Below are positions 44,401-58,350 of a stretch of DNA of 64,000 nt, piece after piece. Under the pieces are notes generated by a model, which had not been told where the DNA came from, did not search any database, and saw only the letters and a program-made list of their open reading frames with translations. The stretch covers positions 71,373,377 to 71,437,376 of the forward strand of contig CM026426.1 in the NCBI GenBank assembly GCA_014871385.1, read 5' to 3'. The position numbers and the translations under genes are program-made. How positions within the stretch are numbered: position 1 is the first letter of the stretch; the number at the start of each line of letters is the position of its first letter. The stretch comes from Ceratodon purpureus. Taxonomy: Eukaryota > Streptophyta > Bryopsida > Pseudoditrichales > Ditrichaceae.

Positions 44401-45588
44401 CTACAGGAATGCCGTACTCCACACCACGTCGTCGCCCTCCCCGCACCTCTGGTGCACGTCCTTCAACCTCTCCACCGACTTGCAGATCCCGCTGCACGTC
44501 CAGTCAAACGACGCCACGCACAAGTTGCCCGCTTGCGCCTTCCACTCGCAGTCCGGCGGCGTCCCGCAGCACATGCTCCGGTCGTCGATGTGGTCTGCGT
44601 CCAGCCCGATGATCCACGCCCCCAGCGACACATCCTCGTTCGCGTACCGGTGCAGCAGCGGCCGGTTTACGTCGATGTACGCCGCCAGGTCTCGCGAGAT
44701 CGCATAGATCTGCCCCGTCGCGTGACGGAAGTACTTATTCCCCTCCTCCCCGAACTTCCAGTACTCCGGCTCGTGGTACTTCACGCCCTTCTGCGCCAGC
44801 ACCGGCCCCGACTTCATGCACCCGATGTACACCCGCGGCTTCGCCCGGTGCCGCGCCAACGTCGCGCCCAGCATCGCCACGTTCACGTGCACGTCGTCGT
44901 CCACCTTCACGTAAAAGTCCGCGACCCACATATTCACCGCCGTCGCGAAGTAGATCTTCGTCTTCATCGACAGCTCGTGGTATCCCTCGACGTGGTCCAG
45001 CCGCAGGAAGTCCCCGTGCTGCGCGTCCTCCGCCTCGATGGCGCGGTCCAGGATACCACCTGGCGTCGCGCTGTGCCCGATGACGAACCGCATCACGATC
45101 CCCTTCTCCTCCAGCCTCCGCAGCTTCTCGCCCTGCGGCATCCACGTCTCGCGCACCGAGTCCCTCCGCTTGCGACTGCTAAACGCCGTGTTGATCCCTA
45201 TCACCACGAACGCCTTCTTCTTCGCCCCCGCGGGCTGCTGGCCCTCCCCCACCCTCACTGACGATTGCACCGAAAGGCTGCCCCCGGAGCTCGCCTTCTG
45301 CGCCCGAGCAGCTGCCAGCTCCGCCTCGAGCGACGAGATCGTCTTGTCCAGCGTCTGGATCACGTGGTGCGTCCGCGACACCTCGTCCAGGATCTCAGCG
45401 GCCCCGTTGTCCGACCTCGGCTTCGGGTCGCACTCCGTCCTCGCAACGTCATCACCGAACTCTGGACCACTCCACATGCGATTCGTGAACAGCGACCCCA
45501 CGCAGAAGCTCGCCACCCACAGCACCACCACACCCTTCCACGTAATCCCACCACCACTCCCCACACCGATCCTCCCCCTCATCCGCAT
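44401..45588 (-). CDS. Beta-1,3-galactosyltransferase (GT31, DUF4094-type)
   Basis: Intact 395-codon, single-exon gene, ATG at 45588 and TAG at 44401. Residues 17-36 form a hydrophobic signal anchor ([15 protein letters not shown]), followed by the DUF4094-like NRMW segment and a short coiled coil (about 64-97). The GT31 catalytic domain starts near 124: [10 protein letters not shown] at 141-150, the metal-binding VDDDVH with Asp 230-232, [10 protein letters not shown] near 254-263 and the acidic EDVSLGAW at 318-325. A Cys-rich end ([19 protein letters not shown]) is typical of the plant family. The expected role is a type II Golgi enzyme adding beta-1,3-galactose, for example to arabinogalactan or N-glycan chains. 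Length is normal. Homologues I know have introns; this copy has none. It is the only clear host gene, and codon GC3 is very high. Confidence 0.93.
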
Positions 45589-46400
45589 TCTTGCTCCCTC
45601 CTCCTTTCGTTAGAACAGAGGACGCAATCTCACCGCTTTCGTACCTTGCTATGCTTTGAATCGCGTGGCCTGGATCATTTCAATATGTTATCGCTAACCC
45701 CAACCCACCGTACCCTCGCAATTACTCCTCGCAACTCACACTGCAATGGCTCGCCAAACCTGGCATGATGAGTCCCTGCGAGGAAGAGAACTAGGGCTCA
45801 CAATTAACCAAGTAGCCGAAAACCTAAAGAGGAGAGCACGTCATTTTATGTCATGCCACTAACTCCTAAGTAGAAACACAGAAGATTATGCAAGCAGGCT
45901 CTGTCGTGCAGATGGCGGAAGTACGAGGTCCCGTAAGTGCAATCATGCAATGCATCAGAGAGTGGAGCAACAGGTTTTATGCCGAGGTCCAACAAGCCTG
46001 AAGATGAATTGCTTCCCAAGCTCCAAGAGACCACGCAATGTCAAAGCCAGACGCAGACGATGTCAAGCACCACCAACAACAATCTACGTCATAACCATCC
46101 AATAGCCTCTACATGGAAATCGAATCGCAAATCCTTGATACCAAACATTGACTGACGCAGAACTCTCCAGCAAGCTTTTCCGTACTACACATTGTGACAC
46201 ACAGAGGAACCACACTCGAGACCGCAAAACGTCCTCAAGGTCCCACCTTCGATGCCAAATCAGCGTCAACAAAGCTTCAAAGCCGACTTACAATTCTCAG
46301 AACGAATAAACACTATTTTATCTTTCGACTTCGCGCACACCCAAAATCCTCACAACACACACTTTAACTCCCTGACTATAATCCTCGCCCTCGTCTTAAT
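45589..46400. other. Upstream region of the galactosyltransferase gene
   Basis: No gene. It holds the presumed promoter and 5' UTR of the minus-strand gene; I see no obvious TATA box. The GAGAC/GTCTC words characteristic of the MULE start at its right side (46027 and 46215 are isolated, dense from about 46440), so the transposon begins within about 0.8 kb of the start codon. Confidence 0.4.
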
Positions 46401-47890
46401 GGCGTTCGCTATTTCTGTTCCCTTCCGCGGCGGTCACGCGAGACAGGGCCCACGGCGCGAGACCCTTCTTTCGCTCCAGAATTCTTTCCGTCGCTCCCCC
46501 CTCTCGCGATCCGTGCCCGGGCTCAGGATGCCACGTCGGACCCCGTCTCGAAGCCCTCCTGCCACGTCCGCATCCTCCACCTTGTCTCGTCTCGGAACCC
46601 AGAAAGACGAGACACCCCCTGCATGGGCTGTCTCGCGAGACAGCCTCATGGCAGCATGGCCCATGGGCATGCATGGAGATTTTCATCCATCCGAGACGGA
46701 CAGAATTCGTCACGTCCTGTCGAATGACCTTCCACGTTTTAGGGTATGATGTCTCATTTTCGTGGGTGTCACTTCTGCTTTCTCCTGTCACTTCTGCTTT
46801 AGTCTGTCTCGTCGGAGCTATTTCGGGTGTTGAGGTGATGATGGGGTTCTGTGGGTGGACATCATGCGCCGTCTCTTGCAGCCTTTTCCTCAATTTTGAT
46901 TTCTGAGGTTTTATAGGTGTGATGATGGCGTCTCCCCCCTGCTCTGTGTATAGATTGGCAGCCTCCTGGAAAAACGGACTCATTTTATGCCATTGCCTGA
47001 GGAGAGTTGCGAGAGTTGTCTCGTGGGGTGGTGAGAGTGTTCCCTCGAGAGGAGGTGCGAGGGTTTATATGCGCGCGTTGTCGAAGTTTGCTAATTTCTC
47101 TGCCAATTTCTCTCCGTTTCCTTCTCCGCTGTCTCGCGCCATTCTTAGATGTGTTCCGCTTAGTGTTTGTGAGGTGGAGAGTGTTGTGCGAGAGGCGCTT
47201 TCATGGGCGGAGAGTGTTGTGATAGAGTTTGAGAGTGTTGTGAGAACTAAGGAGTCGGAGTCTATTGCTGGAGCCGCGATCCAGGAGTTTGTGCGATTTG
47301 CTCGGAGGAGGAGTGCAGAGGCAATTTCGCAGAGACAATCGAGGTATGTATACGTTGATCATCTTCTATGTGTTTGTTTTTATGGTGTTCCGGAGAGATG
47401 AGAGCGATTTTGTTGCCGGAGTTTGTCACAGAGATTAGTTTTAGGGTTTAGTAGTCATACGTCACGACGTTCTGGGGTTTAGGGTTTAGGATAGACATGT
47501 CTCGTGGAATAGTGTTCAGGTGTATCTTGTCTGCGGTCGTTGTGGGTGGGCTCGCTGATAATGTCGACATGAAATGAGGACGACGATGTCGCCCCCGTTA
47601 CAGGAGTGTCTTGCGTTGGAATTGGGAGGGAGTTCCTGAGGATACCAATTTTGTGCATAGAATCTTAATTTCTGCCCCGATTCGTCGTTCATGTTTTGCC
47701 GAGACAAGGATCCGTCGTAGAGGCTCCTTCCTGTCGTCCACAGTTCCTGCCGAATTCATTGCGCACGGTTTTCGCTTCGCAGCTGTCTCGCAGTCTCGCC
47801 CCTGTGTCTGTGTCTCGGAAGGCCTTATAAACTTCGCATCCAGGTTACTAACCTCCGGCCATGTTTGTTTTAGGTTCAAGTTAGCGAGAC

Positions 47891-50800
47891 ATGGCTCCCG
47901 AGTACAGGAAGAACCTCCAGATCACGGACGATGGCGTCACGGAGGTCCACGAAAGCGACAAGAAGTTGTTCACGGAACACTATACATGGGAGGAGTGGAA
48001 GAGTTTGCTCCTGGAGTGTCATAGCGCGCCGGTGATGTTAGGACGTCGATTGTTCTGCTGCAAGCACGAATGCCGTGGCAAGAATGGGGAGCCCATGTGT
48101 GCTCAGAAGGCGCGTCTGAATACTCATAGGTGGCACGGGTGCCTCCTAAATGTCGACGCGAACGGTAACGTCATCCTGGAGAAGATGTACCCGAATCTGC
48201 TTGAGAAGAACGTTACCATTGACAAGCTGCAAGCGGGTATCTCGCCCCAGAAGTTGGTGGGGGACTACGTGAACGAGACACAAGCTATGTTGCGTCGAGG
48301 TGAGCCGGTTAAATTCCAACAAGGCGTCCCTGCGATTCGTGGTCCGAGTGGTAGATCGCCGAAGAAGCAGACGAAGAAACCCATGAAGGCCGAGACAAAA
48401 ACTGTCCCTGATAGATTGGCTGTGAGGACTTATGATATGATGCTGAGCAGTTCAGATTCCGAGGCAGAGGCAGACAGTGACTTTGAGGCCTCGGACTCGC
48501 CCGTGGTGGAGTGAAAACCCCATAATAGGCCCCCGTTCATCGCCAATCCCGAGACGGCACCGACGCCTGCTGTTGTCCCTATCATCCTCTCACCTCCCCG
48601 GCGAGACACAACTGCAGGCGAAGACGACACCACGGGAGCTGTACCTGATACGTTTGTCGTTGTTCCTCAGGCAGGATTCCCTCCTCGACCGCGAGACAAA
48701 CATGGACGAGATTTGGCGACGAGGGCTTATAAGCCGGTGAAGGAACCCGAGGACAGGGAGTTTAACTCTCGGAAAAACAAAGGCAAGACAACCCCGGCAC
48801 AGAAGATCCCACCGGCAAGGACCGAGACAAACACGACGGCAGCGAAGCGACCGAAACCATCGGACAAGAAACCGCCATCCCCAATCCGGGACGAGACACC
48901 CGGATACGCCTCGGATACGTCTCAGATACGTCTCGGATACGGCTCTGATACGCCCGTCTCCACTCCCACTGTCCACACAGAGGATACTGGAGCGGAGGCT
49001 ATGGTGGTCGACGAGGCCCCGATGGAGGTTCCCCTGAGCCCAATGTCCGCCTTAATGCGAGACAAGGAGAAGGTTGTGGAGGAGGCTCAAGAGGCAGCGG
49101 AGTCCCTATTCATACTAGATCCAATTCGCCAGCCCGAGACACGCTTGGGACACACGGGGCTCACCATCCTAATGGATTACGGGCTTTTTGGGGAAGAGAG
49201 GGAGTTCCACACGTGGGACAGGGGAACTCTTCGGACCAGACTGGGGGAGTTCTTGAAGAAGGAGGGGCGCGAGACAATCATCTCGCTTACCTACTTCCGA
49301 TTCCAGAAGTTGAATCGAAAGGTACGACATCTCCTCCCTGGAGTTCTCAATTTATTTATTTTATAATAACTTGTATTTGTCGTTAATATGTTGCGATATT
49401 TTCATTCTTCTTCGTCTATCTTTCATACTTGTCTCGCACTTCAATCTGTGCGTCAAGGTTGCTAACGGGGAAGGACTGCCGTACTCTCTGAATTGCAGAA
49501 TTCTCTATACTCCGAGAGAGATAGCGGTCTAGCGGCAGATCTTTCTGAAGTGTTGGACACCGGGGAAATGTCCGAGACAGAGATAAACCGTCTCGCGAAC
49601 GCCTCCATGGACTACTACGTCAATGTCCACGACTGGAAGAAACACGAGGAGGCCGTAGATGCCCAGCGCCTTCATAACGCTAGTCTGAAGGAGAAATTCA
49701 TCGCGGACAGGGTTGCAGCGTGGGAGGAGTCCAAGGCTGAGGAGTTGGAGGAAGTGTCATGGGGTTGGAATCCCCAGTACCACATATGCGCGAAGAACCC
49801 CGCTGTCTCGGAGAGGCTACCTCCCATGCCCTAGAAGCACAACGAAATGGAGGCGCGAGACGTGGTCAAGGCACTCGGTACGAGACGGACGCTGCCAATC
49901 GGAGCAGGTCTGGAGCCAAAGATCATTCGCGTTTTCCTCCTCGTCGACAATATTCGGTACAGGTCAGTACAGTGTACTTGTTTATTTTTATTTTTTCGTC
50001 CTGAGGTACTTTATTCAATTCAACCTAATTTTAAAAAAATAAAAACGTCACAAGCCCCTCATATTTTCCTCGTCCTCTGGTATACCAGCTCAGCGGACCC
50101 ACTGCAAGGAGCACTGGACAAAAGTGTCCAGGAGAAGTTGTCTTCGCCTGGAGCTCTAGACACAGCAAGGTGTCTCGTTCAAGCCGCTGGGAGTACACTA
50201 TTCGCTGCTGACCCAGTCGCCGAGACGGAGACATCGGACGCCATTACAGCAGCATGCATGTCCCTCCAGAGCGGTGTCTCGGATGCCCTGCAGGCGTGGC
50301 TCCTGACAGTCCAGGCTCGGGCACTGGAAGACTTTGCAGCTTCCGAAACGGAGTCCTTCATGACGGCGTGGCAGTTGACGGCGCCCGTCTCGGAAGAGGT
50401 ATTCCTAGAGTGCTTGAAGATTTTGCGACGAGCATTAAGTCGACGGGAGGACCTAGATCTCCGTTGGATCCCTCTTGCGGATGGTAAGTTCATATCCAAC
50501 ACAGAGGCCATGTTCTGATGTCTTGTAGTAAGAATGTCTCGGAAACAGTTCAGTGGTTCCGAAGCTAACGGCGTGGACCCTGTATGCAGAGCCGGCCTGG
50601 GCCTCTGGTTTGCTCGGTGCGTTGTCAGTGCGCACTTTCTTGAATGATGTCGCTCAAGACCGGTGGTCCGCTGCCGAGACGGCTGTTGACGGGGTTTCGC
50701 GAGACAGGTTGGTGTATGGCCACTTGAACGTTCATGGTCACCAGATACCTGTCGACAAACCTGCACAAGAGTCCGAAGGGACCGAGACAGCGAGCCCTTC

Positions 50801-52686
50801 ATCCCCATACCACAACGATATGAATGAGGTTGTTGACCTGGCCTCCGTGGATTCGCCTCGCCGGTACGAGAGCCCGCGAAAGGAGACTGCCTCATTCGAG
50901 ACACTGGCATCCGCGAAACCGAGAGGTGAGTGTCCCGGAACATGGACCCAAGAATTGTGAGACGGGTTCAGTTCCCTGCCATTGGGCGATGGCATTCCCT
51001 CTGCATCCCAGATGGACTGTTTCGGATTCTCGCAATTACTTTCTTGCACACCAACTCATCATACAGTGTCTAGAGGGACATTAATTAACGGAGGTTGCAA
51101 TATTGTGTCTTTACTAGACGCAGTGGCAGCGTCCGAGACAGTAGTCGAGGAGGACAACGAGCTCGAGTCAGACGAGGGACACTCCTCTGGAATTGGGTCA
51201 CGAGAGGAAGGACTCAAGATTTGAAACCTCGACTTTGGCGCACCAATACTGCCGAGTAAATTGAAACCGGGGAGCCACTGGATTTTTAAATTCATGGACC
51301 CTGCCAAGCCTGTTCCGAACACAATGGAGCCCCCGAAGGATTTCAAGACGGAGCTTGTCTCGGAGGGAGTACAGATGGATTGGAAGGCAGTGCTTGGCGT
51401 ATTGATGATTCCATTCCACGTTGGGTGCTTTATGTAAGTTCTTAAGTTTGTGAATGGCATGTTTTATTAGTCATGGTATGTTTAGGCTCGTTGTGTCCAT
51501 GTTTTTTATTCTTGAAAATGTTTCGCGGTGTCATATTCTTGAAAATGTTTTGAGATCATGTTCCTATAGCGCTATCTAAGTCGTACCCTGTCTCGGATCT
51601 AACATGATCACTGTCTCGTATTTCAGGCAAGGGCATGTGGACGAGACGGAATATGGGGATTACATCATCTACTTTGGTAACGACCCACGGATTGCCGTGA
51701 AGATCCCTGTCCTGGTCCAAGAGTGGGAGTACGTACTCAGACCACAGGCGTGCATGATTGGGCCATTCGTGGACCTCCTCCTTCGGCACTTGGTTTTGAG
51801 ATCGCCGGACAACGTCGCGAGACAGTACGTGGTGGCAGAATCCAACGTCAATACTGTCTTGGCTGCGCACATCCTGGAGTGCAACGGGGATTGGGAATGG
51901 CTGGGGAGTTTCGGATTCCAGTGGCTCTCAGGTTGCAATGGCGGGGAGAACACGTTGGTGATCCCTTATTGCGATAAGGATCACTGGACCCTGTTTGTTG
52001 TGGAGCAAGACATGACATATCACCTTGGATCGCTCCTCCACATACACGACACGGAGGCTCAAGACAACTTCGTCACGTTGGTGCACATCGCGTGGGCGAG
52101 CTCCAAGGGAATTGTTGCGGGATCGTAGGACTGGTGGAAGGTAGTGTCTCGCGGATGTATCTCGCTCAAGGCCTCGAACCAGAAGGAGTCATGGGAGTGC
52201 GGTTATGCGATGAGTTTCCAGTTCTGGCAATACATGGTCACCCGTGGATCTGCTTGTCGTTTCCCGAAGCCTGCGGAGAAAATGAAGAAGGAGCGGTGGT
52301 TGAAATGGACTGGGCAGCAAATGCAGTTGTGGTTCATTGAGCAGCTGTACATCGAGACAGCCCGTGCGGACGACAGATTACCGAGACCGAGGATCTGCAG
52401 GACTAGTTTGCAGGATTTGCCTAACCTGATGGAGGTGGATATCGTTGTCCCGGACTATGTCACAGTTAAAGGCGGGGTCCAAGTGTTCGGTATTTCGCCT
52501 GCGATGTCTCGGACCGGGTACACCGTGGATGCGTTCCACATCCGTGAACCACGATCACCAACTTCCGAGGAGGAGGAGGACACAAAGAAGAGGCTCGGAA
52601 GCGCCACCAAGTCCAGGAAGTCTAAGCGTGAGAAATTCGAGAAGATGATGCACTCTCCTTCAGGCTCGGCGAGACGACGGCTGTAG
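47891..52686 (+). pseudogene. MULE accessory gene with C-terminal Ulp1/C48-like domain
   Basis: Six exons with GT-AG introns in phase: 47891-49321, 49499-49962, 50089-50483, 50590-50925, 51118-51433, 51627-52686. They sum to exactly 4002 nt, or 1334 codons. ATG at 47891 follows a good context. Exon 1 has a Cys/His cluster (FCCKHECRGKNG, CAQKARLNTHRWHGC) and a Lys/Ser/Asp-rich linker. Exon 6 has the protease pattern: IPYCDKDHWTLFVVE with the catalytic His, HIHDT, and Gln/Cys in NQKESWECGYAMSF. The usual Asp-Ser after the His appears as Gly-Ser (YHLGSLL). A basic Ser-rich tail ends the protein. In-frame stops are at 48512 (TGA), 49832 (TAG), 51222 (TGA) and 52126 (TAG), each one C-to-T step from CGA or CAG; there are no frameshifts. 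Such domains cleave SUMO-like conjugates. Confidence 0.75.
48901..48955 (+). repeat. 11-bp tandem repeat (CGGATACGTCT)
   Basis: Five units of cggatacg(t/c/g)ct with few changes, inside exon 1 of the accessory gene. Eleven is not a multiple of three, so each unit shifts the translated phase. The unit contains or neighbours the GTCTC word. Confidence 0.85.
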
Positions 52687-53276
52687 ACTGCGTTTTTTTT
52701 TTTGGGCAAGACAGGCAGGAGACTTGTACAGGACTGCTGAGTACATATTACCAGTTTTGGGGATGGGAGCGAGACATAGAGTTGTAGAGATGTAGTGCAG
52801 AGTTGAAGGACACAATGACAGTGTATAGATGAATGGTATAGTTCGAGACAGTCCAAGGAAGGGGAGTGACTGTCTCGCCTCTCGTTTGTAGTGGACTCGC
52901 TGTGAGTAGTTGAGAGCTCAGTAACTCGTATGTGGGATGCTTGGCTCACAGGGGTCGGAGAGGAAAGAAGAAATTTTTTTGTACAAAATTTTCCACGGGA
53001 AACCGTGTGACGTATAATTAGAAAACGGAAGATTCTTTTACATACAATACTTGTCTACATTGCGCATGAAAGAGTATCGATAATTTCTAAACTTCTATCC
53101 GAGACAGAACTTCAAAAAATTCGCTACAACACAATCTAGAGCTACAGTTTACGAAGTGCTAATGGTCCTAACATCCTCCTTGACCTAGTGGGGTTCCAAG
53201 GGGTGAGACACATGCCAACGTATGTAAGGGACTCGTAGTCGACCCTGTCTCGTCTCGAGACAGTTGGTGTTCGGGA
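52687..53276. other. Spacer between convergent MULE genes
   Basis: No gene. Probably the 3' UTRs of the two convergent genes. It contains many CGAGACA/TGTCTCG copies, including the compact inverted cluster TGTCTCGTCTCGAGACAG at 53246-53263. Confidence 0.5.
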
Positions 53277-53525
53277 CTACCCGCCAAAGTATTGTCTTGG
53301 TTTAGGGTACACGTCCACCTGATTCCGTTTCGCACAGCTCATTCTCCGAGACGACAATGCTATATCATATGATGCCTCCAAAAACAATTGCTCCAGTACC
53401 TCTAAAGCGTCGGCCTCCAATTCCTGGAGATCACAGCAGTCTATGGCACCCGAGACAAGCCCCTCTGGATGAACTCCCGGGACTGGGTCTTCCCTCCCAT
53501 TGAAGAAGTTAACGTTCATGGACTC
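53277..53525 (-). CDS. Small ORF downstream of the MULE transposase
   Basis: An ATG near 53525 opens about 83 codons (MESMNVNFFNGREDPVPG; LQELEADALEVLEQLFLEASYD; end QYFGG). A Leu/Glu-rich helix is visible. It could be a last exon of the transposase gene, a separate small protein, or chance. No family is recognised. Confidence 0.3.
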   Translation of the reverse strand, partial: ESMNVNFFNGREDPVPGVHPEGLVSGAIDCCDLQELEADALEVLEQLFLEASYDIALSSRRMSCAKRNQVDVYPKPRQYFGG

Positions 53526-53714
53526 CATTCTGCGAACCCAAGTTCTACGCCAAACGCGAACTACGAAAACTGATACCCCGTGACTATGAATCCCACTCAA
53601 CACTAGCAGATATAAAAGAAAGTACAAGTGGTGGCAGGTATACTTATAGGTATAGATCCCGCTGTCTCGATCCGAGACACATCAACTATAGAATTCCGAG
53701 ACAGGGACGTGGGG

Positions 53715-55290
53715 TCACTCCTGCGTGGATCTGGGCGGACGTCCGACGCGTCCCCCGTCGAGGAAATCCCTATTCCGTTTCAGCGAGTTCGGCTTGTTCG
53801 GGTCATTCCTCTCAAATCTTGGGGCGTCTCGCTCCGTTGGATGAAGGAGACCGGCTAGAATCCTCCTTTCCATGGCAGCGTGTCTCGTATTCATCTCTGC
53901 CAATTCCGCCGCCAAGTGCTTCTGAATGATATAGTGTCTCGCAGCTCGTTCTGTGATTTCTCTTCCCGTTTCGTCTATGATGCGCTTCATTCTTGCCACC
54001 TCGTCTTCTTGTCTCGGTGGAGGGTCGTCCGTGGGCACTTCCTGTGTCTCGCTGTTGGCATTCCAGTCTTCGGGCACATCCTGCGACGGTCCGGTTTCAG
54101 TCTCGCTTGGAATTCCCGGTCCCGGGGGATTTAGGAGAGCCGAGACACCGCCTAGCTTGGTACCGTACAGTGTCCCGCAGACCTTCACAACCGTCCCGTC
54201 GGCAAGGTCAGGCCTCATTACCCGAAGAACCTTCAGCTGATGTTTGCAAAGATTTCCTTTCTCGGCCCATACACATTCGCAAACAGCCCACACGGTATCG
54301 GGGTTGTACACAGCGTATCTATTGTGGGCTCGCTTGGACGACGTGACTATGGCGGGGTCACCGAGTCGAGACGGCAGCGAGACAGAGGAGTCCGGGATCT
54401 TGTTCGCCGATATAATAAAGTTTCTAACGATCTGCTCTGCCTTCTTGTTCGGTATGAAGCCATTCTCCTTCATGTACTGGTTGTAGTCGTATTTTGTTAC
54501 GACGTCGTTTGTGAGCTCGTGAATGAGCCAATCGAGACGCCCTCCATCCAACCGACTCTTGTCGGCCTTCAGAGTGGCCTTTGTGTGTCCATGATATGAC
54601 TCAATCCCTGCGTTAGTGTCTTGACCAGCATGCGGCATGTGCCTGTTCCCTGTCACCCACATTTTGGGCTTTATCATCCAGTTCTTTTCAATGTACGCCC
54701 AGAATGCAGCAGCGCCGGACACCAATGTCTTCAGTCTCGCGAACCTAGCCTTCACGTAGTCCAAGACGGACAACCTCGAATCGGGAGACTCCTCGATGTA
54801 CATGAGCGCTCCCATTTCCCGCAGCGCCCACGCTCTGGTGATTATCCCTTTAATTTTGGCACAGGCGTTCTTTTGCCAGGCCCGCCTCACATGCCAGAGG
54901 AATAAGAATACTTTAATCTTGGGCCATACCAACCTATGAAACGCACGAGACATATCAGAGGGACAGAAATGGAGATGCAGTATGTGTGATGGGGAATCAC
55001 GAGACACTAAGTGGAACGGTATGTCACGAGACAGCTTGCAAGTCGGCAAATCACAAGACAATACGCAGAAAGAGATATCAAAATACGTACATTATGGCGT
55101 TAATCTCAGCAAATGCATCATCGACAATGAATGCAATCAGGAGCCACTCTGGCATCTTCGAAACTAGCTTCTGCTTGATTGCGGTGAGCCAGGGAGTGAT
55201 GTCTTTCTCTTTTGTGGATTGCGCGATAATGAAAGCAACCGGGACTCCATTCCGCCACTTGTCGAACAACATCAGAGTGTACAGAGGATA
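53715..55290 (-). pseudogene. Mutator-like transposase, C-terminal two thirds
   Basis: Two exons: 55290-55091 (200 bp, acceptor CAG before it, GTACGT donor after) and 54933-53715. Exon 1 begins YPLYTLMLFDKWRNGVPVAF and reaches the second catalytic Asp segment (FIVDDAFAEINAI). Joined through ATG it continues WPKIKVFLFLWHVRRAW, the canonical MULE order. Then come the conserved GQDTNAGIESYHG segment, a SWIM zinc motif (VCECVWAEKGNLCKHQ) and a charged coiled-coil tail (ITERAARHYIIQKHLAAELA) ending in a basic patch. The exon frame is open without stops. Exons with the first catalytic Asp and the N-terminal DNA-binding domain are missing; an LTR-like sequence starts 23 bp upstream of exon 1. Confidence 0.88.
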
Positions 55291-55312
55291 CTGCAAGAGC
55301 GAGACAGATGTC

Positions 55313-56092
55313 TGTCGGAACACGGAAACACAACTAACATCCGGATAACACCCCGATTGGGCGTAAACTTCCGTATTGTCACTTAGTTCCGAGTATCGTC
55401 CAGGGATTCAATAGTGTTTCACCAAGTAGTTACTTCTAATCATTCCGAGCCTTGCCACTGCTCGGATAGTGTCTTCGGAACGTAACTCCTTGACTATCTC
55501 TCTCTCTCTTTCTCTTTCTCATCAGGTGTTTCGTCCACAAACCCCAACGTCTCGGATCAGTTACCGTCTCACAACTGTCCTAGAATACTCTGGCCAGCAG
55601 GTCACACAGACGATCCTCTCCGATCCGTAAGACTACAACGACAAACCAATCCGGATCTGGGAGAACCAGGATCCGATTATCTCTAGGCGACCCGTACCAC
55701 GTTCCGACTCCCCCTCTCACTGTGCACGGAACCTCTTCAGAAGTTCAGGGAGCCCGACCAAGTAATCCTTGATCCGCTCGACCCTAGCGACGGCTATTCC
55801 GTATGAGGTTGGTTTGGGGATGGAACAGTGAGGCTTCACTCCTACGACAATCCGCTAAATCTTTCCGCTCAATCCCATTACCTTTCCGGTTCGGGCCTCG
55901 TCACAACTCCCATCACCTTCCTATCCGAGCTACAGCGGAACTCTCGTATCCTTCCCGGATAATTCACACTTAGCGGGAAATCACGCACAATACTTGCAAA
56001 ACACGAATACTTTACTGATAAGGAATATAGGGAGAAAACTGCTTCCGGGCCACGCATATCCAAAACTGCTTCCGGGCCACGCATCCTTGACA
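55313..56092 (-). repeat. Probable LTR inserted at the MULE edge
   Basis: The segment starts TGTCGGAACACGG and ends CCTTGACA, so both ends carry TGTC/GACA as LTR ends do. On the minus strand it follows directly from a gypsy RT fragment (56098-56239), compatible with a 3' LTR in minus orientation. The flanks ATGTC and GGTAG are not a target duplication, and there is no polypurine tract. A 23-bp direct duplication (aaaactgcttccgggccacg and three more bases) lies near its right end, about 56035-56085. Confidence 0.45.
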
Positions 56093-56097
56093 GGTAG

Positions 56098-56239
56098 TCA
56101 GCGTTGGATAAGGCCTTCTTCAGCTCCTCGAATGCCTGCTGTCTCCGTTCCGTCCACAAAAACTCTTCTTCCTTCTTTAACAGTTCCGTTAATGGGGCTG
56201 CCAATTTGGCGTACGCAATAATAAACCTTCTATAGTAAC
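56098..56239 (-). pseudogene. pol: Gypsy RT connection-domain fragment
   Basis: The minus strand reads YYRRFIIAYAKLAAPLTELL, then FLWTERRQQAFEELKKALS, the standard Ty3/gypsy segment between RT and RNase H. It is about 47 codons long and is cut off on both sides. It differs clearly from the 6.3-kb element, so it is from another family. Confidence 0.8.
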
Positions 56240-56323
56240 CGACGCATTAGGAGCAGTTTGGGGTCTCCAACGGGCCTTTTCCATGCTTTCCGTGCCAAAG
56301 TTTTGGGCATGCCCGTGCACTTT

Positions 56324-56352: not shown

Positions 56353-57011
56353 CGCCAAAAGCGAGCCAAATCGCGAATGGGGGGGTCCGGCCAATGGTCG
56401 CGCAGGAAGGCTTCCCTCCCCCGCGCGTGTAGTCCCGCAGGTCGAGAACGGAGCCTCTTCGCGCACGGAATTCGAGCATTGCAGAAGGGTGTCAGCGGTG
56501 GTGGGCTTTATGAACGCCTGCGAAACTGACTCCACAGGCCACCTACCGAAATCGAATTGCCGCTCCCCCTTTGAGATGCAACGTGCACAAGGTGTTGATG
56601 TCGAAATGCTGCCAACGGTCATTCCGAACCTCATGCGTTCCCCTGAGAGAGTTGTCGTTGTTGCGTTGTCAAGCAGGATGGAGCGGTGGAGGCCTCCAAA
56701 GGCTGGGTGAAGTTGTTCGATTTGGGTTGTGGGTGGTCACGCATTGTGCAGTAGAGATTTAGGGTTTAGCTGTAGTGGTCTTCCAACGCTGCCAGCGGTC
56801 TGCCATCCACATAGGTTGGAGAGAGTACCTGAGTTGGGAATTGGGGTTTCGGGATGAGGTTTTAGGGTAGGTCGTACCTTGGTTGCGAGGCCGTGGACGC
56901 AGGTTTCAGCCGTTCGTGATGGCGGAGGGTTTGTTGACAGCGTGTAGTTCTGGCGGATGATGACAGCGACGACACCATTTGTAAGTTTTTGAGTTCACAG
57001 TCGAAAATTTC

Positions 57012-58350
57012 ATGCATTCTAGTGGTATGGCTTCACGGCCAAACTCCCTCGTACAGAGTGTCATTCTGCATAATACTCAAGACTTGGAGGGCAACTGGAT
57101 CCCCATGAAGGTGGATCGTGATTCATGGGTTATGCTGCAACCAGCTTCGGATGGGCCTTGGGGTAGAGAGGCAAGGCGACATGGTGGAGAAAATTTTCGG
57201 GGGGCCTTCAAAGCGCAGATCAGAGATTTCTCTTGGATCTCCACGGAGCATGGAGCATGCGACCTCGATAAGGTGCTTGTGCAACATGCATATCAACCAA
57301 GGCATCTGCGCTTGGATCCTGCGGAGGCAGCAACCAAATTGGGAATGGCAAACTACCTGTACGCGTCGGTTTCGGAGGATTGGGTACATCCCGCATCTAT
57401 CCTTGGTCCCATTCTTGTGCTCCATGTTGAGATTGGAGAGGCAACACGGAATCGACAGAGCCACGCGGAGTTGCTGGACATAGGTACATTCTTCCTTGGT
57501 GGTCTGTATTTGCCTCCAACAGGTGACACGCTGTACGGGAAGGTTGAAGCACTCCCGCTTCCAGGGTTCAACGATGTGGAGTGGCCTTTGCCAGACATGC
57601 ACACATCTGAGGCGTTTAGAACAAAGCTCACTCTCGATTTTGCAAATGCTATGAAAGCAACAACTGGTAGCAGCTTCGTCCACCAGCAATGGTTTATGCC
57701 AATCCATGTTATGGTTGATTTGTTTGCGGTAGCTGCTGACAGCATTAGGCGGACACCTACATTGTTTGTTTTGAGTAGTCCATCCGAGGCTCTGCTGAGC
57801 AGTCTAATGAACCCAGGGTGGAACGAGAAGTTCCACATTGGCCAAGATGTCATCAAGTGCGTTGCCAACAGGACCAGCATTGTTTTCCGCTATCACGTGG
57901 GAAGACAAACATTATACACCAGGTTCATGTATACAAGGTATAGGGGGGCTGCCAACAGTCAGTGGGAAGCCTTGGATCACCTACCAGAGGAGGTGATGGT
58001 GGAAGTGTCTTGTATGTTTAGGGGGAACTTGCTGCCAACATCTGAAGTTGGCAAGGGTTGGCCAGTATCCCACCTGCGGCACGAAATTGCAATGGCACTT
58101 GGAGATGACGTACCTGGGCAGTACAACCTGGTTTTGATAGAGGCCAACGGTGTTCGTGAGAAAAAGGTACGAGTCTAGCCGAATTCATGTAGTCGTTTTG
58201 ATGTGTTGGGAATTGGCTGTTCAGAGCTCCTTGCTGCCAGCAAACGAAAATGACAGGATTTGTTGGATGCAGATCAACCAGCGCCATGAGAGACACCTTA
58301 CAGCTGCGGATGTCACGGTTCCCAAAAGGATGAAGATTGTGGAGCTGTAG
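57012..58350 (+). CDS. Uncharacterised 410-aa protein of the TTGCTGCCAGCA element
   Basis: ATG at 57012. Exon 1 is open to 58166 (AAAAAG, then GTACGAG donor); a 106-bp intron ends at CAG 58272 and exon 2 adds 25 codons to TAG 58350, all in phase. The protein is globular, without signal peptide or membrane segment. Landmarks: ASRPNSLVQSVILHN near residue 7, HGACDLDKVLVQHAYQPRHL around 77-96, a hydrophobic core ILGPILVLHVEIGE near 120, FFLGGLYLPPTGDTLYGKVE near 150 and a helical basic C terminus ending in MKIVEL. It is intact and without stops, unlike its neighbours, so this is the best-preserved gene of the element. I do not recognise a domain. The convergent minus gene at 59-61 kb encodes a RING-like protein. 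Confidence 0.65.

What the first reader, a model, noticed from the sequence alone, without database searches (positions are those of the whole stretch)
46400..55312. MULE saturated with the short motif CGAGACA/TGTCTCG
I count about 100 GAGAC/GTCTC sites, most of them CGAGAC/GTCTCG, in roughly 8.9 kb. A given 6-mer on both strands would be expected about four times. Copies occur in exons of both genes, in introns, in the convergent 3' spacer and at both flanks, in both orientations. The density drops sharply at about 46.4 and 55.3 kb. Codon choice seems bent to hold it. In Arabidopsis VANDAL MULEs, element-encoded VANC proteins bind short motifs that have multiplied within their own family and lift silencing. 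This could be an analogous self-recognition system in another plant lineage, with a different motif.
Basis: partly seen in the sequence, partly recalled or inferred. Interest (0 to 1): 0.93.

Follow-up and report, generated by a model that had tools for sequence, protein, structure and literature searches.

The report
Moss jumping genes saturated with self-tags
A family of jumping genes, probably from a moss, carries the same six-letter DNA word about once every 100 letters, even inside its protein-coding parts, and a related group carries a different word, which suggests that each group labels its own copies for recognition by one of its own proteins.

Summary
The region is a right-truncated Mutator-like element (MULE), window 46370-55327, holding 82 CGAGAC/GTCTCG; the other 55 kb hold 11. 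Seven intact relatives in the same genome (11.1 kb, about 315-bp TIRs, 9-bp duplications in 6 of 7) carry 101-114 copies each, 9.9/kb against 0.26/kb in their flanks. The core is CGAGACR, on both strands and in all reading phases, with nearly free flanks. Codons are bent to hold it: 57 coding sites against 13 expected with protein and codon usage fixed. A distant relative (55% amino-acid identity in one transposase exon) is also saturated, but only 1 of 10 sites there is shared: density is kept while sites turn over. A sister clade carries another dispersed word, yGTGACACTG, in 5 of 5 sampled loci, with little or no CGAGAC. Best reading: an element-wide recognition word read by an element-encoded protein, functionally like Arabidopsis VANDAL/VANC anti-silencing, but with no VANC domain found, almost no tandem arrays, and motifs inside exons. 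Binding and anti-silencing are inferred, not shown. One prediction fails: older copies have fewer motifs, not more.

The parts
46370..55327 (.). MULE copy, truncated at its right end (lacks the transposase 5' exons and the right TIR); 82 CGAGAC/GTCTCG
   Evidence: alignment to relatives in the same genome; counts
46370..46684 (+). left terminal inverted repeat; TIRs are the most motif-dense part (16 sites in 630 bp of the two TIRs of the intact copy C6_43.4)
   Evidence: matches the inverted right end of 9 main-family copies at 94.9-96.9%; density
47891..49363 (+). gene A exon 1: N-terminal Cys/His cluster (...CKHECRGKNGEPMCAQKARLNTHRWHGC) followed by a low-complexity linker; broken by a stop at 48512-48514 in this copy
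   Evidence: ORF list, tblastn to exon translations; relatives P0063, P0064
49466..51431 (+). gene A middle exons (matches at 49466-50035, 50036-50515, 50532-51431; intron limits not resolved)
   Evidence: tblastn
51446..52683 (+). gene A last exon with weakly Ulp1-like (C48-type) cysteine protease features; premature stop at 52126-52128 in this copy
   Evidence: H-D-Q-C stretch of relatives aligns to PDB 6dg4 (E 0.086)
53718..54953 (-). transposase last exon with SWIM-like CxC...CxH (about 54933-54953 is probably still intron)
   Evidence: the SWIM match in Pfam is below its cutoff
54940..55092 (-). transposase intron (limits inferred by eye from splice signals and the resemblance to P0059), carrying motif copies at 54946, 55000 and 55027
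   Evidence: sequence reading, site list
55081..55302 (-). transposase exon 2 (part of the RNase H-like MULE domain); the element breaks off just beyond
46439..55305 (.). 82 dispersed CGAGAC/GTCTCG sites (47 forward, 35 reverse); the first starts at 46439, the last at 55300

Best explanation
CGAGACR is an element-wide recognition word. A DNA-binding protein encoded by the element itself, most likely gene A (Cys/His-rich N-terminus, Ulp1-like C-terminus), binds the many copies along the whole element and keeps the family's own copies open against host silencing, perhaps by removing SUMO from silencing factors. Selection on density, not on position, keeps adding and retaining sites, even in coding exons through synonymous choice. 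When a lineage's reader protein changes, the word changes: the sister clade uses yGTGACACTG. SHOWN: saturation, sharp core, both strands, codon bending, turnover of positions with density kept, better retention than matched hexamers in six of eight comparisons, a second word in the sister clade, a companion gene in both clades (in the sister clade seen in one locus).
For: Enrichment 9.93/kb against 0.26/kb in the flanks of 7 intact copies. Sharp core; only three one-mismatch neighbours exceed twice expectation, at most 17 copies. 57 coding sites against 13.0 +/- 3.1 (maximum 23 of 1000) under synonymous permutation; in the distant relative's transposase 13 against 1.07 (maximum 5 of 1000). Distant relative: 57 sites inside its TIR-bounded 10.1 kb and 1 in the other 4.9 kb fetched; 1 of 10 positions shared in a homologous exon. 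Retention in a copy about 80% identical: 48 of 106 motifs, 60 of 269 local GC-matched CpG hexamers, p 2.4e-5. Insertions inside elements carry none: 0 in 390 bp and 0 in 636 bp, where about 2 and 3-4 would be expected. Second word in 5 of 5 sampled sister-clade loci; genome-wide GTGACACTG 5,508 against 2,741 for the reversed control. Where it could be compared, the companion gene is more diverged than the transposase (24-36% against 35-53% identity by exon; exons 1 and 4 gave no match), as reported for VANC against VANA (PMC5735166).
Against: No binding or methylation data. Gene A has no Pfam match above cutoff and no VANC domain; its Ulp1-like call rests on marginal matches. One further MULE relative (C8:17.79 Mb) shows neither word (2 CGAGAC, 0 GTGACACTG in 6.5 kb). 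In the sister clade the transposase exons show no clear codon effect. Retention excess is not significant in two of eight comparisons (C1 against C13 p 0.18; C1 against C6_93.4 p 0.66), and the eight share rows. Gains of new sites on the main stem were too few to test (4 of 29 opportunities, 3 of them ambiguous CpG reversals).
Confidence: 0.5

Rival explanations
1. The motif is a transposase-binding site. It is densest in the TIRs because the transposase binds there, and the internal copies are extra landing sites that attract the transposase to its own family.
For: TIR density 25.4/kb against 8.6/kb in coding and 10.7/kb in other sequence. The transposase is the better conserved protein, and the word follows transposase clades in the loci sampled.
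Against: Cut-and-paste needs sites at the ends; saturating exons and introns 5 kb away is unexplained and could titrate the enzyme (reasoning). The VANC precedent involves a companion protein, not the transposase (PMC5735166).
Confidence: 0.2
2. The word is read by a host-encoded DNA-binding protein (activator, insulator or demethylation factor) that the element exploits by accumulating its sites.
For: Would explain the exact conservation of CGAGAC between families whose companion proteins are only 24-36% identical.
Against: The sister clade in the same genome uses another word with little or none of the first, so two host factors would be needed. Genomic flanks are poor in the word (0.26/kb).
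Confidence: 0.14
3. The word acts in RNA (splicing, export or translation signal, or avoidance of small-RNA targeting).
For: Many sites are in genes; gene A shows a weak sense bias, 26 to 14.
Against: Bias p = 0.08; the transposase region is 15 to 16 and the rest 21 to 22. TIRs are the richest part and other noncoding DNA is at least as rich as coding. A double-strand signal fits better.
Confidence: 0.06
4. No function: compositional bias, minisatellite expansion or a mutational quirk.
For: Short words can expand by slippage; one 11-bp array (48901-48954) touches the motif.
Against: Markov and codon-permutation nulls fail by a wide margin. Sites have no shared flanks. Non-homologous positions in a relative show a comparable density. 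Matched hexamers are retained less in six of eight comparisons. A second word of different length occurs in the sister clade.
Confidence: 0.04

Closest known systems
Arabidopsis VANDAL elements and VANC anti-silencing proteins (Hosaka et al. 2017, PMC5735166, parts 1-3 of 6 read; Sasaki et al. 2023, PMC10398659, passages seen)
   Same: MULEs with a companion gene beside the transposase; a short word that is dense in one family and rare elsewhere; related families have different words (YAGTATTAY; AGTTGTCC/AGTTGTAC); the companion protein diverges faster than the transposase.
   Different: VANC words lie mainly in noncoding DNA, often in tandem repeats, arrayed in one orientation; here they are dispersed, on both strands, in exons too, with almost no tandem repeats. 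No DUF1985 or DUF287 match was found in gene A. These elements have TIRs of about 315-417 bp. Anti-silencing has not been shown here. The host is probably a moss, not a Brassicaceae.
ULP-carrying MULEs of flowering plants (KAONASHI/KIULP; recalled, seen here only in a search listing)
   Same: MULE with a Ulp1-like cysteine protease gene.
   Different: No dispersed word is known to me for them (recall). Protein similarity was not tested here.
En/Spm TnpA and its 12-bp subterminal repeats (recalled; search listing only)
   Same: Element-encoded protein binding a short repeated word, linked to demethylation (recalled).
   Different: CACTA superfamily, words in the subterminal regions, not spread through exons (recalled).

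Membership tests
Mutator-like element (MULE) | MULE-type transposase domain | tested here: met
   PF10551 E 5.9e-10, 39.9 bits against cutoff 27.6, on joined exon translations of one copy
Mutator-like element (MULE) | about 9-bp target-site duplication and terminal inverted repeats | tested here: met
   exact 9-bp duplications in 6 of 7 copies with both ends; TIR about 315 bp. The window copy lacks its right end
VANDAL/VANC system | short word dense in the element and rare elsewhere | tested here: met
   9.93/kb against 0.26/kb in flanks
VANDAL/VANC system | different word in a related family | tested here: met
   CGAGACR against yGTGACACTG
VANDAL/VANC system | words mainly in noncoding DNA, often tandem repeats in one orientation | tested here: not met
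   57 of 114 sites coding, both strands; one tandem array touches the word
VANDAL/VANC system | companion protein with VANC domains (DUF1985, DUF287) | tested here: not met
   no such Pfam hit in translations of the five gene A exons of one copy, or in the L041 protein
VANDAL/VANC system | absent or degenerate TIRs | tested here: not met
   TIRs about 315 bp; but PMC6446971 (passages) says some members of the VANDAL group have TIRs
VANDAL/VANC system | companion protein binds the word and removes DNA methylation | not testable with these tools
   needs bench work
Ulp1/C48 protease | catalytic H-D-Q-C arrangement and family match | tested here: inconclusive
   no Pfam hit; best PDB match 6dg4 for both clades, E 0.086 and 0.007, over the catalytic stretch; the Q is not kept in P0062; structure prediction switched off

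The most novel reading that the evidence does not exclude
In this moss, whole clades of MULEs carry clade-specific address words (CGAGACR; yGTGACACTG) along their length, in one clade written into coding exons by synonymous choice, and each is read by the element's own DNA-guided, Ulp1-like SUMO protease that strips silencing from every copy bearing the right word. It would be an independently evolved, denser and coding-level counterpart of VANDAL/VANC, with a set of words that diverge with the element clades.
Probability: 0.28. Interest if true: 0.95.

Novelty: new variant of a known kind. Interest (0 to 1): 0.87.

Why it matters
Self-recognition by transposons against silencing is documented in the Arabidopsis VANDALs. 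A second case in a moss, with two words in one genome, would suggest that such address systems are a recurrent solution and would make their evolution testable: the same word survives in a relative with 55% identity in a transposase exon while nearly every site in that exon has moved. Coding exons that carry a putative protein-binding word once per about 115 bp are an unusual double use of coding sequence. A short word plus its reader would also be a candidate tool for sequence-specific epigenome editing.

Tried and rejected
Rejected: chance or composition; codon usage alone; tandem-repeat origin; RNA-strand signal as main cause; an effect of this one copy. A triple-motif genome pattern was uninformative: 331 hits against 410 for the reversed control. 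Test of site gains on the main stem: too few events. The relative at C8:17.79 Mb shows no dispersed word; its commonest 9-mers come from a 29-bp tandem repeat and AG- or A-rich runs, and about 6 kb of the stretch reads N. Search for the N-terminal Cys/His module in the distant relative: not found. Genome-wide pairing count CGAGACAN{0,30}TGTCTCG and TIR copy number: machine busy, not obtained. DNA of relatives outside this genome could not be read; protein relatives were found. Rows dropped: of 16 fetched loci plus the window, the alignment leaves out C9_14.4 and C6_103.5d (truncated) and the two 65% relatives; C6_103.5d holds 24 sites between 7.7 and 11.7 kb of its 15-kb stretch. The truncated main copies C2_21.1, C11_1.6, C5_13.2 and C9_14.4 hold 103, 101, 92 and 87 sites in their whole 15-kb stretches. 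Paper searches for prior reports; no listed title or abstract start describes this; only the open-licence library was searched and most listed papers were not opened.
Full report
WHAT IS THERE. The region is one copy of a Mutator-like DNA transposon. Its left end is at 46370 and it breaks off at 55312-55327. Relatives in the same genome show the whole element: about 11.1 kb, TIRs of about 315 bp beginning CCCTGACTATAATCC, and exact 9-bp target-site duplications in 6 of the 7 copies with both ends (the seventh, C7_2.7, has none). It carries two convergent genes. The transposase (minus strand) matches PF10551 (E 5.9e-10) and has a SWIM-like Cys/His pattern (below the Pfam cutoff). Gene A (plus strand) has a Cys/His-rich N-terminal exon and a C-terminal domain with an H-D-Q-C arrangement like Ulp1 proteases. 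The Ulp1 call is weak: no Pfam hit, best PDB match 6dg4 at E 0.086; the sister-clade protein independently finds the same chain at E 0.007. The window copy looks dead: stops in gene A, lost transposase 5' exons, lost right TIR.

HOST. The genome held (362 Mb; window on contig C6 of 110.5 Mb) fits the moss Ceratodon purpureus and its giant sex chromosome (recalled). A database protein named from Ceratodon purpureus is 90% identical over 131 residues to a clade-B transposase of this genome. The species name is therefore an inference.

THE WORD. 82 CGAGAC/GTCTCG lie in the element and 11 in the other 55 kb. In seven intact copies there are 772 in 77,726 bp against 7 in 27,274 bp of flank. In copy C1_23.2 (109 sites, 58 forward and 51 reverse) the next base is A in 75 and G in 26; other flanking positions are nearly free (a weak G preference follows); of the one-mismatch variants only CAAGAC, CGAAAC and CGAGCC exceed twice expectation (17, 16 and 14 copies). 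Spacing is irregular (mean 101 bp, coefficient of variation 0.86). In copy C6_43.4 density is 25.4/kb in TIRs, 8.6/kb in coding segments and 10.7/kb elsewhere.

CODON CHOICE. Nine coding segments (6,642 bp) of copy C6_43.4 hold 57 sites. Shuffling synonymous codons within each segment, which fixes protein and codon usage, gives 13.0 +/- 3.1, maximum 23 in 1000. All six phase/strand settings are used. One short segment (201 bp) has none. The distant relative's transposase exons hold 13 against 1.07 (maximum 5 in 1000).

EVOLUTION. Of 37 matches to the last transposase exon, 19, including the window, are full length at 95-100%. I fetched 11 of the other 18, three copies at 83-86% in that exon, and two relatives at 65%. 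Three young copies are 99.7-99.8% alike, and in four copies the two TIRs differ by 0-2 of 315 bases (8 in a fifth; two could not be compared without gaps), so the family moved recently. Motifs are retained better than local GC-matched CpG hexamers in six of the eight comparisons (p 0.046 to 4e-6; for example 48 of 106 against 60 of 269 at about 80% identity); two close ones are not significant (p 0.18 and 0.66), and the comparisons share rows. Gain on the main stem could not be resolved. Two insertions inside elements (a 390-bp MITE and a 636-bp stretch inferred to be an insertion) have no site, where about 2 and 3-4 would be expected.

A DISTANT RELATIVE, SAME WORD. The element at C2:1.24 Mb has its own TIRs (417 aligned bp, 87.5% alike), a transposase 35-53% identical by exon and a gene A 24-36% identical in the exons that match. 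It holds 57 CGAGAC between its TIR ends and 1 outside. In one homologous transposase exon (55% amino-acid identity) there are 10 and 7 sites, and only one is shared. Another relative, L042 (next to a transposase 57% identical with stops), shows 7 CGAGAC plus 15 decayed forms in 3 kb.

A SISTER CLADE, ANOTHER WORD. In L041 (transposase 41-56% identical by exon, Ulp1-like gene 29% over 86 residues) the top word is yGTGACACTG: 14 exact 9-mers and 21 GTGACAC in 7.5 kb, both strands, flanks free, and no CGAGAC. Four more sister-clade loci, all that were sampled (L043-L046), hold 5, 2, 2 and 2 exact 9-mers in 3, 2, 2 and 2 kb; L043 also has 3 CGAGAC. The clade-A loci counted have no GTGACACTG. A further relative at C8:17.79 Mb has neither word. 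Genome-wide the 9-mer occurs 5,508 times against 2,741 for its reversed control; among the first 100 places listed (to 6.4 Mb of C1) it forms islands, and the two sister-clade transposases listed in that stretch (C1:1326821, C1:6394705) both lie in or at the edge of islands; two further island pieces (6.017-6.020 and 6.031-6.041 Mb) have no listed transposase, and one 381-bp-spaced row at the contig start looks like a satellite. In L041 the transposase exons hold few sites (3 TGACAC in 2.1 kb against 21 in the other 5.4 kb, no clear excess over 100 codon permutations), so coding-level saturation is a feature of clade A only, as far as seen.

MECHANISM. A word kept at high density while positions turn over, on both strands, in exons and introns alike, is what selection for binding-site density on double-stranded DNA would give. 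VANC proteins are the precedent: they bind short words of their own family and remove methylation (PMC5735166, parts 1-3 of 6 read; PMC10398659, passages). Here gene A is the likeliest reader, because it is the companion gene in both clades (in the sister clade seen in L041 only; the other four pieces were 2-3 kb) and is more diverged than the transposase. A Ulp1-like protease tethered to the element suggests local deSUMOylation of silencing factors; that step is conjecture. The transposase itself is the main rival, given the peak in the TIRs.

COMPARISON. Works like VANDAL/VANC: the likeliest reading, about even odds. Is a VANDAL: not supported. No VANC domain was found, the word is not in noncoding tandem arrays, and long TIRs are present (though some VANDAL-group members have TIRs: PMC6446971, passages only).

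Noticed in passing
L039:7805-8194: A high-copy MITE of about 390 bp with about 40-bp inverted ends, inserted in the distant MULE; dozens of matching places, most 91-95% alike (40 of 1919 candidates scored); it lacks the CGAGAC word.
   Followed up: partly
window 44404-45609 (-): Beta-1,3-galactosyltransferase-like gene (Galactosyl_T, DUF4094) next to the element.
   Followed up: no
window 55881-56246 (-): Retrotransposon-like fragment (RT_RNaseH_2, below the Pfam cutoff) close to the truncated right end of the MULE.
   Followed up: no
window 56985-58175 (+): Open frame of 397 codons without a Pfam match.
   Followed up: no
G000 C1:2402-3925: Five GTGACACTG copies spaced about 381 bp at a contig start, probably a satellite unit.
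   Followed up: no
window 48901-48954: An 11-bp tandem array (GATACG.CTC.) inside gene A whose units resemble, and one of which contains, the reverse word.
   Followed up: partly
G000 C6: About 92 of the 149 scored sister-clade transposase matches (hand count; 773 candidates in all) lie on the 110-Mb contig C6, which is 30% of the genome and may be a sex chromosome.
   Followed up: no
G000 C1:6016971-6040854: Dense GTGACACTG islands without a listed transposase match, possibly non-autonomous or nested elements.
   Followed up: no
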